From Stenoxybacter acetivorans DSM 19021 (lineage in GTDB: Bacteria; Pseudomonadota; Gammaproteobacteria; Burkholderiales; Neisseriaceae): DNA of 64,000 nt. Under the pieces are notes generated by a model. That model had not been told where the DNA came from. It saw only the letters and a program-made list of their open reading frames with translations, and did no database searches. Position numbers and translations under genes: made by a program. Within the stretch, counting starts at the first letter, position 1. Every line of letters begins with the position of its first letter. The DNA lies in NCBI RefSeq assembly GCF_000745895.1, contig NZ_JQKE01000007.1:1-64000 (forward strand), given 5' to 3'. This document shows, one piece after another, positions 42,271 through 46,296 of the stretch.

Positions 42271-42708
42271 ATGAAAAAAATGATTACCACCGCGTTGTTA
42301 TTGAGTGCACTCACTGTGGGTGCGTCGGGCTGTGCCAATAGCCAAAGCCAAGCGAACAGCACCGATACGCAATCTTTGTCGGGTAAATGGCAAGTGGTGC
42401 GTATTGATAACCAAGCCGTTTCGCGTGATGATTATCAAGTCAGTTTTAATGCGGAAAACAAAAGTGTTTATGCTTATTTCGGCTGCAATCGTTTCAGAGG
42501 TGCTTATACCCAGCAGGCAGACAAATTACAGTTTTCTCAGCTCGCTTCTACCATGATGATGTGCGTGAATATTGAAGATGAAAACCGTGCTAAGGCGGCA
42601 TTAACAGACACCCGTCAATGGCGAAACCTTAACCAAGACGGCGGTCTGGTTCAATTGCTTGACGGCAACGCCAAAGTTCGTTTGGAATTGAAACCGACGG
42701 CAGAATAG
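42271..42708 (+). CDS. META-domain lipoprotein (HslJ-like)
   Basis: A 145-residue predicted lipoprotein: signal peptide with lipobox ASGC, lipidated at Cys21, followed by a META domain (SGKWQVVRIDNQAV, AYFGCNRFRGAY, LASTMMMCV). The E. coli relative HslJ is a heat-inducible envelope protein linked to novobiocin resistance; the function here is unknown. It follows the exporter genes by 80 bases in the same direction but need not be part of that operon. Confidence 0.85.
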   Translation: MKKMITTALLLSALTVGASGCANSQSQANSTDTQSLSGKWQVVRIDNQAVSRDDYQVSFNAENKSVYAYFGCNRFRGAYTQQADKLQFSQLASTMMMCVNIEDENRAKAALTDTRQWRNLNQDGGLVQLLDGNAKVRLELKPTAE

Positions 42709-42790
42709 TTAAATTATCAATCCAACAAAAGTTAAAATTGTTGAACATTGACAAATGTGTATCAAGCTGCATTGATATTAGGAGCAGACC

Positions 42791-43624
42791 ATGATAGGTT
42801 GTTTCGTTGCCGGAACATTGATACACACCAAAGAAGGTTTGCGGCCAATTGAGCAAATCAAGGTGGGTGATGATGTGCTTTCCACACCGGAAGACGGAAG
42901 CGGTGGAACGGCTTACAAAAAAGTTATTAATACCTTTGAGTTTGAAGATCAGGAAACTTGGTTTATCTCTTGGGAAGATCTAACCATGCTTAAAGCCCAT
43001 ACTAAGCATGAAATTGGCAGAGATGAATATCTCAAGGCATATGGCAATGGTTTTGTGATCACAACACCCAATCATCTATTCTGGGTTGTGAGTTCCCGAG
43101 AAAAAAGCATCGAATGTAACAAGCTGGGGAGGCGGATTTTGAAACTGCTTCCCCCTTATCCACAACAACAATGGGTACGGGCTGACCAGCTTTGCGATGG
43201 AATGAGTTTGCTGCTTGCTGATGGACGAATTGTGGAAGTCAGTCGAGTTTCGCGTGTTTACAAAACCGATACAGAGTGGTTGGGCTGGATACGGCAGAAT
43301 TATGATGATGCGACCAGCAAGGGGATTATGCTCAATTTTTCCAATGCCAACGTTGTACCGAATGTCCATATCTACGCACATCGCTTCGATAGTCCTTATT
43401 GCGATCCGGAGTATGGTCTGCTCGAAAATCCCAATAAATCCTATCTTTACGACTATCCGTATGACGAGGAAGTACCCGAATCTTGGTATCGCAGCAAGGT
43501 TTATCACTTTGAGGTTGAGGATTACCACACCTATTTTGTCGATACAATGGGGGTATGGGTACATAGCAATAATGAGTGCATGACGGATAGGGAGTTTAAT
43601 GATGCTCGCCGAAAGAGTGTGTAA
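42791..43624 (+). CDS. Free-standing Hint (intein-like) domain protein
   Basis: A 277-residue protein that is almost entirely one Hint domain of the polymorphic-toxin type. Block A starts at once: [20 protein letters not shown], with the nucleophile Cys at residue 4. Block B is [11 protein letters not shown] with the conserved Thr and His, and the last blocks are [15 protein letters not shown] and VWVHSNN. Only about 15 residues ([16 protein letters not shown]) follow, so there is no toxin domain. A good ribosome binding site (AGGAG) lies six bases before the ATG, and an in-frame TAG lies four codons upstream, so nothing longer is encoded. Base use is AT-richer than the neighbours, suggesting transfer. 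The C-terminal HSNN departs from the usual HN. Confidence 0.82.
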
Positions 43625-43640
43625 TACAACATGCACGGAA

Positions 43641-44189
43641 TTGCCGCCTCATCAGCATAAGCGCACGATACGCATTTTGGGCATTGACCCCGGCAGCCGT
43701 GTAACCGGTTTTGGCGTGATTGATGTGTACGGGCAGCAATATCAATATGTGGCATCAGGCTGCATCAAAACCGAAGCCAAATTCAGCTTGCCTGAGCGCA
43801 TCGGCGTGATTGTGCGCCACTTAGATGAAGTCGTTGAAACCTATCAACCGACACAAGCGGCTGTAGAGCAAGTGTTTGTGAATGTGAATCCCGCTTCCAC
43901 TTTGATTTTGGGTCAAGCACGCGGCGCGGCAATTGCCGCGCTGGTGATGCGGCAATTGCCGGTGTATGAATACACCGCTTTGCAGGTGAAACAAGCGGTG
44001 GTGGGGCAGGGAAAAGCCGCAAAAGAGCAGGTGCAGCACATGGTGGTGCGCATGCTGAACTTGAGTGGTACACCGCAAGCCGATGCCGCCGATGCGCTGG
44101 CGGTGGCATTGACGCACGCATTGCGCAACCACAGCTTGGCGGCGCAAATTCAGCAAGGGTTAAGCCTGAAAGCAGGACGGTTTCACTGA
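43641..44189 (+). CDS. ruvC: Holliday junction endonuclease RuvC
   Basis: RuvC cuts Holliday junctions after RuvAB branch migration. The sequence has [15 protein letters not shown] with the first catalytic Asp, [13 protein letters not shown] with the Glu, and [14 protein letters not shown] with the paired Asp residues. I favour the TTG at 43641, giving [18 protein letters not shown], about 182 residues and the usual short N-terminus. An ATG at 43599 is possible but would run through the end of the Hint gene. It starts 16 bases after that gene's stop. An uptake sequence follows. Confidence 0.93.
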
Positions 44190-44253
44190 ATTCAGGCTGC
44201 CTGAAAACACAAACAGCCGCACAGACAGACGCAAATTTCCCCACACAACAGCC

Positions 44254-46296
44254 ATGATGACACCGCAAACCCAAGCGATATTGAACATAAATGAAGCCAC
44301 CGCCAAAAAACTGGCGAAGCTGCATTTAAATACACTGTGGGATTTGGCGCTGCATCTGCCCCTGCGTTACGAAGACGAAACCCACATCACGCCGATTGCC
44401 GACGCGCCGCTGGGTGTACCTGTGCAGATTGAGGCAAAAGTATTGACGCAGGAAGTGCAGTTTAAACCGCGCAAACAGCTGGTGGTGCAGGTGGCAGACG
44501 CATCGGGCAGTGTGCTGTATTTGCGCTTTATTCATTTTTATCCGAGCCACCAGCAGCAATTGGTGCGCGGCAATACCATTCGTGCTTTAGGAGAAATCAA
44601 ACACGGTTTTTTCGGTGACGAAATGATACACCCCAAAGTTCGGCAAGCAGAAAACAGATCCTTAGCAGAAACCTTGACACCGATTTACCCCACAGTAAAC
44701 GGTTTGAATCAACCCACGCTGCGCCGCCTGATTCAAACAGCCTTAAAACACATTCCGCCAACCGATACCTTGCCGAATGCGTTGTTAAACGAATTACAGC
44801 TGCCACATTTAACAGACAGCCTCACATTACTGCATGCGCCGCCGCCGGAATACACCATTCATGACCTGCACAACGGCGCGCTGCCTGCGTGGCAGCGGCT
44901 GAAATTTGATGAATTGCTGGCACAGCAATTGTCCATGCGTTTGGCTCGGAAAAAACGCATCAGCGGGTCAGCCAAAGCCTTGTGCGGCAACGAATCTCTC
45001 AGCCAAGCCTTATTGGCACAACTGCCGTTTACCCTTACCCGCGCCCAGCAAAACGCATGGGCAGAGATACGCCGTGATTTGGCACAAACGCACCCCATGC
45101 ACCGATTGCTTCAGGGCGATGTGGGCAGCGGTAAAACCATTGTTGCCGCACTGGCGGCACTGATTGCGGTTGAAGCCGGTTTTCAGGCAGCCGTCATGGC
45201 GCCCACCGAAATTCTGGCAGAGCAGCATTATTTAAAATTCAAACAGTGGTTTGAGCCATTGGGGTTGAATACAGCATGGCTTTCAGGCAGCCTGAAAAAG
45301 CGTGAAAAAACGGCTGCCAAAGCGGCAATTGCCGAAGGTACGGCGCAAATCGCTGTCGGTACGCATGCTTTGTTTCAAGACGATGTGGGTTTTGATAATT
45401 TGGGTTTGGTGATTGTCGATGAACAGCACCGCTTTGGCGTGGCGCAGCGGTTGGCGCTCAAAAACAAAGGTGAAGATCTGCATCAGCTGATGATGTCGGC
45501 AACCCCGATTCCGCGCACGCTGGCAATGAGTTTTTTTGCGGATTTAGATGTGTCGGTGATTGATGAATTGCCGCCCGGACGGACGCCGATTAAAACCCGA
45601 TTGGTGAACAGTGTGCGCCGTGATGAAGTGGCGGCTTTGGTGCGGCGTACCGGTGAAATGGGACGGCAAGTCTATTGGGTCTGCCCGTTGATTGAAGAGT
45701 CGGAAACCTTGCAATTGCAAACCGCTGTTGAAACGCAGCAACAACTGCAAGCCGAATTGCCGTCTATGCGCATCGGCTTGGTGCACGGACGTTTAAAGCC
45801 GCAGGAAAAGGCGGATATTATGGCGGCATTTGTGCGCGCAGAATTGCAGGTCTTGGTGGCAACCACCGTGATTGAAGTGGGTGTGGACGTACCCAATGCG
45901 GGGCTGATGGTCATCGAACACGCCGAACGCATGGGTTTGGCGCAACTGCATCAATTGCGCGGGCGTGTCGGGCGCGGCGCGGCGGCAAGCGTGTGTGTAT
46001 TGTTGTTCAGTGAGCCTTTGTCAGAATTGGCAAAATCACGATTGAAAGTGATTTATGAGAATACCGATGGTTTTGAAATCGCCCGCCAAGATTTGATATT
46101 GCGCGGTCCCGGTGAATTTCTCGGCGCACGTCAAAGCGGCACACCAATGCTGCGTTTTGCCGATTTGGAAGAAGACCTCAATCTCTTAGAAGCCGCCCGC
46201 CGCTTGGCAGAACCGTTAATTACCAAGCAACCGCACGTGGTAGAACAACATTTGGAACGGTGGCTGGGCAGCAAAGAAGGATATTTGGGGGTTTAA
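44254..46296 (+). CDS. recG: ATP-dependent DNA helicase RecG
   Basis: RecG drives branch migration and fork reversal. The 680-residue protein has the wedge (OB-fold) domain in the N-terminal third, then Walker A LQGDVGSGKTIVAALAAL, MAPTEILAEQHYLKF, DEQHRFGVAQR, MMSATPIPRTLAMSFF and the C-terminal VIEVGVDVPNAG, HQLRGRVGRG. The final GPGEFLGARQSG is a RecG hallmark. It follows ruvC by 65 bases, separated by an uptake sequence. Confidence 0.97.
   Translation: MMTPQTQAILNINEATAKKLAKLHLNTLWDLALHLPLRYEDETHITPIADAPLGVPVQIEAKVLTQEVQFKPRKQLVVQVADASGSVLYLRFIHFYPSHQQQLVRGNTIRALGEIKHGFFGDEMIHPKVRQAENRSLAETLTPIYPTVNGLNQPTLRRLIQTALKHIPPTDTLPNALLNELQLPHLTDSLTLLHAPPPEYTIHDLHNGALPAWQRLKFDELLAQQLSMRLARKKRISGSAKALCGNESLSQALLAQLPFTLTRAQQNAWAEIRRDLAQTHPMHRLLQGDVGSGKTIVAALAALIAVEAGFQAAVMAPTEILAEQHYLKFKQWFEPLGLNTAWLSGSLKKREKTAAKAAIAEGTAQIAVGTHALFQDDVGFDNLGLVIVDEQHRFGVAQRLALKNKGEDLHQLMMSATPIPRTLAMSFFADLDVSVIDELPPGRTPIKTRLVNSVRRDEVAALVRRTGEMGRQVYWVCPLIEESETLQLQTAVETQQQLQAELPSMRIGLVHGRLKPQEKADIMAAFVRAELQVLVATTVIEVGVDVPNAGLMVIEHAERMGLAQLHQLRGRVGRGAAASVCVLLFSEPLSELAKSRLKVIYENTDGFEIARQDLILRGPGEFLGARQSGTPMLRFADLEEDLNLLEAARRLAEPLITKQPHVVEQHLERWLGSKEGYLGV

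What the first reader, a model, noticed from the sequence alone, without database searches (positions are those of the whole stretch)
42791..43624. Stand-alone Hint (intein-like) gene with its own start, no toxin and no N-terminal partner
Seen: Cys nucleophile at residue 4, block B T-x-x-H, closing Hint blocks, an AGGAG site before the ATG, an in-frame stop just upstream, and only about 15 residues after the domain. Known: in polymorphic toxins the Hint domain sits between a delivery region and a C-terminal toxin and releases the toxin by self-cleavage. Inference: with three residues before Cys and no toxin after, classical release makes no sense. Either it is a donor cassette or remnant of a toxin locus inserted before ruvC, or the domain has been recruited for another reaction such as cleavage-linked attachment to a second molecule. 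The ending HSNN instead of HN also departs from splicing-type domains.
Basis: partly seen in the sequence, partly recalled or inferred. Interest (0 to 1): 0.7.

Follow-up and report, generated by a model that had tools for sequence, protein, structure and literature searches.

The report
Toxin-less Hint gene from widespread family
The gene encodes a self-cleaving-type (Hint) protein domain standing alone with no toxin attached, and it belongs to a widespread, apparently undescribed set of stand-alone Hint genes that bacteria keep under selection, often in small arrays with fixed ends and swapped middles and often without the residues needed for cleavage.

Summary
Window 42791-43624 encodes a 277-aa Hint protein (Pfam PT-HINT 62.9 bits; AlphaFold model matches the CthBIL4 Hint fold) with its own start, an AGGAG site and an upstream stop. 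Three residues precede Cys1 and 19 follow the last His; the terminal Asn is Ser. No toxin or immunity gene is beside it, and no Hint-bearing toxin is in the assembly. It is not an oddity. Related stand-alone Hint genes occur across beta- and gammaproteobacteria, at housekeeping loci, singly or in 2-3-copy arrays. Many lack Cys1 (Gly or Ser instead) and the terminal Asn. In ten genomes checked, all PT-HINT hits lie in stand-alone frames of 223-368 aa. Stand-alone copies show purifying selection (dN/dS mostly 0.1-0.4). Their N- and C-ends are constant while the middle is swapped: paralogues with 96% identical N-modules share 15% in the middle. So classical toxin release does not apply, and the toxin-donor explanation fails for the class, although a remnant cannot be excluded for this copy. 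Best reading: a recruited Hint frame carrying an exchangeable insert, as an independent, usually non-cleaving protein. What the insert does is unknown; an immunity-like conflict role is my guess. New variant of a known kind.

The parts
42791..43624 (+). stand-alone Hint gene, 277 aa, stop included
   Evidence: Pfam PT-HINT 62.9 bits
42779..42781 (+). in-frame TAG stop closing the frame four codons before ATG
   Evidence: sequence
42780..42784 (+). AGGAG ribosome-binding site, 6 nt before ATG
   Evidence: sequence; same check on relatives
42800..42955 (+). constant N-module, residues 4-55, with Cys1 (residue 4) and block A
   Evidence: A2 alignment: mean pairwise identity 0.74 (residues 4-31) and 0.48 (32-55)
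43064..43075 (+). block B T-P-N-H (residues 92-95)
43256..43489 (+). variable insert, residues about 156-233, low model confidence from about 171, at the position where inteins carry the homing endonuclease
   Evidence: mean pairwise identity 0.13-0.20; pLDDT; fold comparison; position relative to inteins inferred
43490..43564 (+). constant C-module, residues 234-258 (blocks F and G, ending VWVH)
   Evidence: mean pairwise identity 0.73 (234-248), 0.59 (249-260)
43565..43621 (+). 19-residue tail [19 protein letters not shown]; Ser where most relatives have the terminal Asn
42271..42708 (+). upstream neighbour: META-domain lipoprotein-like gene, 82 bp before the Hint gene, no terminator-like site between
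43599..44189 (+). downstream neighbour ruvC; longest frame starts ATGATG inside the Hint gene, a TTG at 43641 is the other likely start

Best explanation
This is one member of a recurrent class of independent Hint-fold genes. The Hint domain has been cut loose from delivery region and toxin and is made as a short soluble protein. The two conserved ends (N-module with block A, C-module with blocks F and G) form the Hint frame, and a highly variable segment sits in the middle. At the DNA level the same ends act as recombination arms: middles are exchanged between genes, arrays grow and shrink, and middles are shared with Hint domains of giant surface proteins. Self-cleavage is usually abolished (Cys1 absent, terminal Asn lost) or pointless, as in this copy, where cleavage at Cys4 would release only Met-Ile-Gly. 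Shown: stand-alone status, conserved frame, variable middle, middle exchange, purifying selection in relatives, absence of a toxin partner. Inferred: that the window copy is itself expressed and functional. Guess: that the protein works in the cytoplasm through its variable insert as a specificity module in a conflict between strains (immunity-like).
For: Own genome: 3 main Hint loci and a short trace, none in a large toxin. Census of 80 loci from named genomes: many ORFs starting 1-14 residues before block A and ending at or just after the final His, in Acinetobacter, Psychrobacter, Moraxella, Chitinibacter, Deefgea, Neisseria and others. Cys1 replaced by Gly or Ser repeatedly (12 changes by parsimony; stand-alone versus embedded 19 changes, at least 12 forced by starred branches). 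Loci are housekeeping sites such as cysS-Hint-kdsD and gspK-Hint-queD (names from sequence), without toxin or immunity genes seen. Ten genomes: all PT-HINT matches in open frames of 223-368 aa. dN/dS: Neisseria tandem copies and near relatives 0.11-0.28, more distant pairs 0.15-0.40; Psychrobacter 0.12-0.38; Acinetobacter 0.27; N-module 0.08-0.16, middle 0.20-0.33. Middle exchange: same Psychrobacter site in two species with flanks and ends 83-88% identical but no DNA homology in the middles; N 0.96/middle 0.15/C 0.77; N-module DNA 98-99% identical between genes with different middles. Homology between embedded and stand-alone copies confined to the domain, 82% over 647 nt.
Against: The window gene has no close orthologue, so selection on it cannot be measured; its nearest relatives in the tree are mostly domain-in-larger-protein forms with weak support. 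Its tail resembles the start of a cut-off extension. It keeps Cys1, unlike the clearest non-cleaving relatives. No convincing promoter was found. The second full copy in this genome lies among immunity-type genes (DUF4272, weak SUKH, LRR), and the third is only a C-terminal fragment, so decay also occurs; IS-split and frameshifted copies exist in Neisseria. No functional evidence for the insert; its model in a Psychrobacter form is not confident.
Confidence: 0.6

Rival explanations
1. Remnant: the Hint part of a polymorphic toxin gene or cassette that landed between META and ruvC and lost its toxin; not functional.
For: Lower GC than most of its neighbours (0.444 vs 0.52-0.55 for recG and ruvC; META is 0.461). 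Own genome has another Hint among immunity-type genes and a C-terminal fragment. Terminal Asn lost. Nearest tree neighbours are mostly embedded.
Against: 277 codons without a stop, good ribosome-binding site, catalytic Cys, TxxH and closing His all kept; related stand-alone copies are under purifying selection.
Confidence: 0.27
2. Silent or expressed donor cassette that supplies Hint variants to a toxin or giant surface protein by recombination, as maf and CDI orphan cassettes do.
For: Constant ends, swapped middles, shared middles between a 12,717-aa Acinetobacter ORF and stand-alone genes. Neisseria maf islands hold BIL-toxin cassettes with their own start (PMC4287609).
Against: In ten genomes with stand-alone copies, and in the window genome, no Hint-bearing large protein exists to receive them. 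A pure donor needs no start codon or SD, yet Psychrobacter arrays keep AAGGA before ATG (18 of 28). No toxin or mafI-type gene follows. Many copies lack Cys1.
Confidence: 0.1
3. Active N-terminal self-cleavage that removes Met-Ile-Gly and exposes an N-terminal Cys, or attaches a small molecule to it.
For: Cys1 with Gly before it, T-x-x-H and penultimate His all present; N-cleavage does not need the terminal Asn (established Hint chemistry).
Against: Closest functional analogues in Moraxellaceae lack Cys1 altogether; no partner protein or ligand-binding extension is seen.
Confidence: 0.08

Closest known systems
PT-HINT domain of polymorphic toxins (Pfam PF07591)
   Same: Sequence family (62.9 bits), fold, conserved blocks
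   Different: No delivery region, no toxin, no immunity gene; large variable insert; terminal Asn lost
[quoted passage not shown]
   Same: Best sequence-profile and fold match in the PDB
   Different: About twice the length through the insert; not set between two flanking regions
mafB-CT cassettes with BIL in Neisseria maf islands (PMC4287609)
   Same: BIL/Hint at the start of an ORF with its own start codon; their BIL lacks the first 7 residues, comparable to the missing Cys1 in relatives here
   Different: Those carry a toxin C-terminus and are followed by mafI, and lie downstream of full mafB; here nothing follows and no mafB-like Hint protein is present
Inteins with homing endonuclease
   Same: Hint frame interrupted at the place of the endonuclease insert; one relative sits in frame inside Mfd
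   Different: No endonuclease match found by Pfam, no host protein around the gene, Asn lost

Membership tests
PT-HINT (PF07591) | score over the curated cut-off | tested here: met
   62.9 vs 27.7 bits
Hint fold | predicted structure matches solved Hint domains | tested here: met
   2lwy TM 0.84 on target
Polymorphic toxin | N-terminal delivery region before the Hint domain | tested here: not met
   3 residues before Cys, stop four codons upstream
Polymorphic toxin | C-terminal toxin domain after the Hint domain | tested here: not met
   19 residues then stop
Polymorphic toxin | immunity gene next to it | tested here: not met
   META and ruvC are the neighbours
Splicing intein | Cys/Ser1, block B TxxH, terminal HN plus +1 nucleophile, host extein | tested here: not met
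   Cys1 and TxxH met; HN is HS, no extein
A-type BIL | Cys1 and terminal His-Asn, domain between two flanking regions | tested here: not met
   HS instead of HN, no flanking regions
Neisseria maf CT cassette | toxin C-terminus followed by mafI, in a maf island | tested here: not met
   definition from PMC4287609
Stand-alone Hint class described here | own start just before block A, ends just after the last His, variable middle | tested here: met
Stand-alone Hint class described here | purifying selection on the copy in question | not testable with these tools
   no close orthologue held; relatives show it
Self-cleaving Hint | autoprocessing activity | not testable with these tools
   needs expression and mass spectrometry

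The most novel reading that the evidence does not exclude
A new class of polymorphic cytoplasmic proteins: the self-cleaving Hint fold has repeatedly been disarmed and reused as a fixed frame that displays an exchangeable insert, with the frame's own coding ends serving as recombination arms, and the inserts act as specificity modules in conflict between strains or against mobile elements.
Probability: 0.22. Interest if true: 0.82.

Novelty: new variant of a known kind. Interest (0 to 1): 0.62.

Why it matters
Hint domains are understood as processing devices that act on what is attached to them. A recurrent, selected class with nothing attached, often lacking the cleaving residues, would mean the fold has a second career as a scaffold. 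The constant-ends, swapped-middle pattern is a diversification system that can be tested directly, and it would change how many 'Hint domain-containing' annotations are read.

Tried and rejected
Single-sequence scan of genome contigs: no relatives; the alignment A1 then worked. Phages: no match. Viral contigs gave 13 mostly weak matches and were not pursued. Empty META-ruvC site in relatives: the META gene is not beside ruvC in the 29 relatives whose flank was read, so the insertion cannot be dated. Moraxella osloensis plasmid copy first looked stand-alone, but its frame has no start codon before Cys1 and it lies after a Tn3 transposase, so it is a 5' remnant. Pseudomonas PIC25 Hint-OEP fusion first looked like an insertion, but the OEP part seems to begin with its own signal region, so it may be read-through. 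A transposable-element explanation: no terminal repeats around the gene and no common mobile gene at the loci. The Psychrobacter model's middle (pLDDT under 50) was too poor for a fold search. The tree is a quick one and the middle exchange distorts it, so counts of changes are rough.

Full report
Observation. The frame 42791-43624 is real and as described. The protein is 277 aa, [16 protein letters not shown]..., with block B TTPNH and closing blocks [25 protein letters not shown]. An in-frame TAG lies four codons upstream and AGGAG six bases before ATG. Pfam gives PT-HINT at 62.9 bits against a cut-off of 27.7. An AlphaFold2 model (mean pLDDT 82) matches the C. thermocellum bacterial intein-like domain 2lwy best (E 7.8e-9, TM 0.84 normalised to the target), and profile search of PDB sequences agrees (2lwy, E 6e-23). 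About 80 residues (156-233) are extra to a minimal Hint domain and poorly modelled from about residue 171; they lie between the last strand of the first part and block F, where inteins carry an endonuclease (position inferred from the model and general knowledge).

Surroundings. Upstream is a META-domain gene, downstream ruvC and recG. The longest ruvC frame begins with ATGATG inside the end of the Hint gene; a TTG at 43641 is the alternative. No terminator-like site lies in 42600-44300 and promoter-like sites are at chance level, so the Hint gene is probably co-transcribed with META and ruvC (inference). Its GC is 0.444, against 0.461 for META and 0.52-0.55 for ruvC, recG and the upstream outer-membrane gene. 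META does not lie beside ruvC in the 29 relatives whose ruvC flank was read, so the junction cannot be compared.

Own genome. Two other Hint loci and a trace: C26, a 242-aa stand-alone frame among a DUF4272 gene, a weakly SUKH-like gene and an LRR-like gene, in a stretch of GC 0.396; C48, a C-terminal fragment at a contig end; and a short match at C26:7095-7172. None is part of a large toxin.

Relatives in the family. Neisseriaceae genomes hold stand-alone Hint genes of about 330-375 aa. In two Neisseria genomes they are tandem units of about 1040 bp beside parE, in one of them with a copied 3' end of parE. Some copies are broken by an insertion sequence or a frameshift. One N. sicca genome has a Hint domain in frame inside Mfd, with Cys1 and a closing HNC, in a loop that also carries other insertions in several Neisseria.

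Wider census. A scan with alignment A1 gave 80 loci from named beta- and gammaproteobacteria. Reading their frames shows three kinds: Hint inside larger proteins (giant repeat proteins with Big, cadherin and M10 peptidase domains); Hint with short N- or C-terminal extensions; and stand-alone Hint genes that start 1-14 residues before block A and end at or shortly after the final His. In the third kind, in Moraxellaceae and scattered betaproteobacteria, Cys1 is replaced by Gly or Ser and the terminal Asn is lost (endings such as VHE, VHQ, VHC, VHDASLNN). On an 84-row tree the stand-alone state changes 19 times (12 forced by starred branches) and Cys1 about 12 times; exchange of middles makes these numbers rough. 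The window copy groups, weakly, with mostly embedded forms.

Loci and arrays. The Moraxellaceae genes sit between housekeeping genes, the same site being used in different species, in 1-3 tandem copies, with no toxin or immunity gene seen nearby (gene names read from sequence). A search among relatives of P. pacificensis found copies in 13 of 57 genomes. In ten genomes with stand-alone copies every PT-HINT match lies in an open frame of 223-368 aa, so no Hint-bearing toxin or giant protein was detected there.

Constant ends, swapped middles. Across 44 sequences, mean pairwise identity is 0.74 in residues 4-31, 0.12-0.36 over most of the middle apart from block B (0.45), and 0.73 in residues 234-248. 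At one Psychrobacter site in two species the flanks and ends are 83-88% identical in DNA while the middles share no detectable DNA homology; single-copy sites match copy 2 of three-copy sites. N-modules 96% identical in protein go with middles 15% identical, and N-module DNA is 98-99% identical between genes with different middles. Homology between embedded and stand-alone relatives stops at the domain edges (82% over 647 nt); one Acinetobacter genome carries a 12,717-aa ORF with a Hint domain and three scattered stand-alone copies.

Selection. dN/dS between stand-alone copies is 0.11-0.40 in Neisseria (0.11-0.16 for most tandem and near-relative pairs), 0.12-0.38 in Psychrobacter and 0.27 in Acinetobacter; it is lowest in the N-module (0.08-0.16) and 0.20-0.33 in the middle. 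One Neisseria copy without Cys1 or the block B His still shows 0.11-0.16 against its near relatives. An SD of the AAGGA type precedes 18 of 28 Psychrobacter genes. These facts fit translated, selected proteins better than silent donors or remnants. Gene conversion between copies could lower some of these values and was not modelled.

Known work. Polymorphic toxins use Hint as a processing peptidase just before the toxin (PMC3482391). Neisseria maf islands contain BIL-toxin cassettes with a TTG start and a BIL lacking its first 7 residues, each followed by mafI (PMC4287609). That is the nearest precedent; it differs by having toxin and immunity. Searches of the held library for stand-alone or tandem Hint genes found no description; subscription papers are not covered.

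Verdict. The gene is a confirmed stand-alone Hint gene and one member of a recurrent class. Shown: architecture, fold, absence of toxin, relatives' selection and exchange of middles. Inferred: that the window copy is expressed and functional (about 0.6). Guess: an immunity-like or other conflict role of the insert. A remnant remains the main rival for this copy.

Noticed in passing
L045:6929-11209 (same place as L138): Neisseria sicca Mfd carries an in-frame Hint domain with Cys1 and a closing HNC in a loop that also holds other insertions in several Neisseria; a candidate splicing or cleaving insert in a repair protein.
   Followed up: partly
G526:C12 around 408476 (L152): Acinetobacter sp. 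Ac_5812 has a 12,717-aa open frame with Big, Hint, M10 peptidase and cadherin repeats, plus three scattered stand-alone Hint genes in the same genome.
   Followed up: partly
L112:2781-5993; L140:1116-3212; L262: Single frames with two or three Hint domains in a row (1071 aa with three in a betaproteobacterial MAG; two each in Moraxella oblonga and a Psychrobacter).
   Followed up: no
L038 and L044: Tandem Hint units of about 1040 bp next to parE; in L038 a second copy of about 480 bp of the 3' end of parE lies beside the array.
   Followed up: partly
L097 and L104: Iodobacter Hint genes preceded in frame by what looks like the N-terminal part of a GNAT acetyltransferase.
   Followed up: no
G000:C26:6400-16000 (L033): Low-GC stretch with a stand-alone Hint gene among DUF4272, weak SUKH and LRR-like genes, resembling an orphan immunity array in the window's own genome.
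   Followed up: partly
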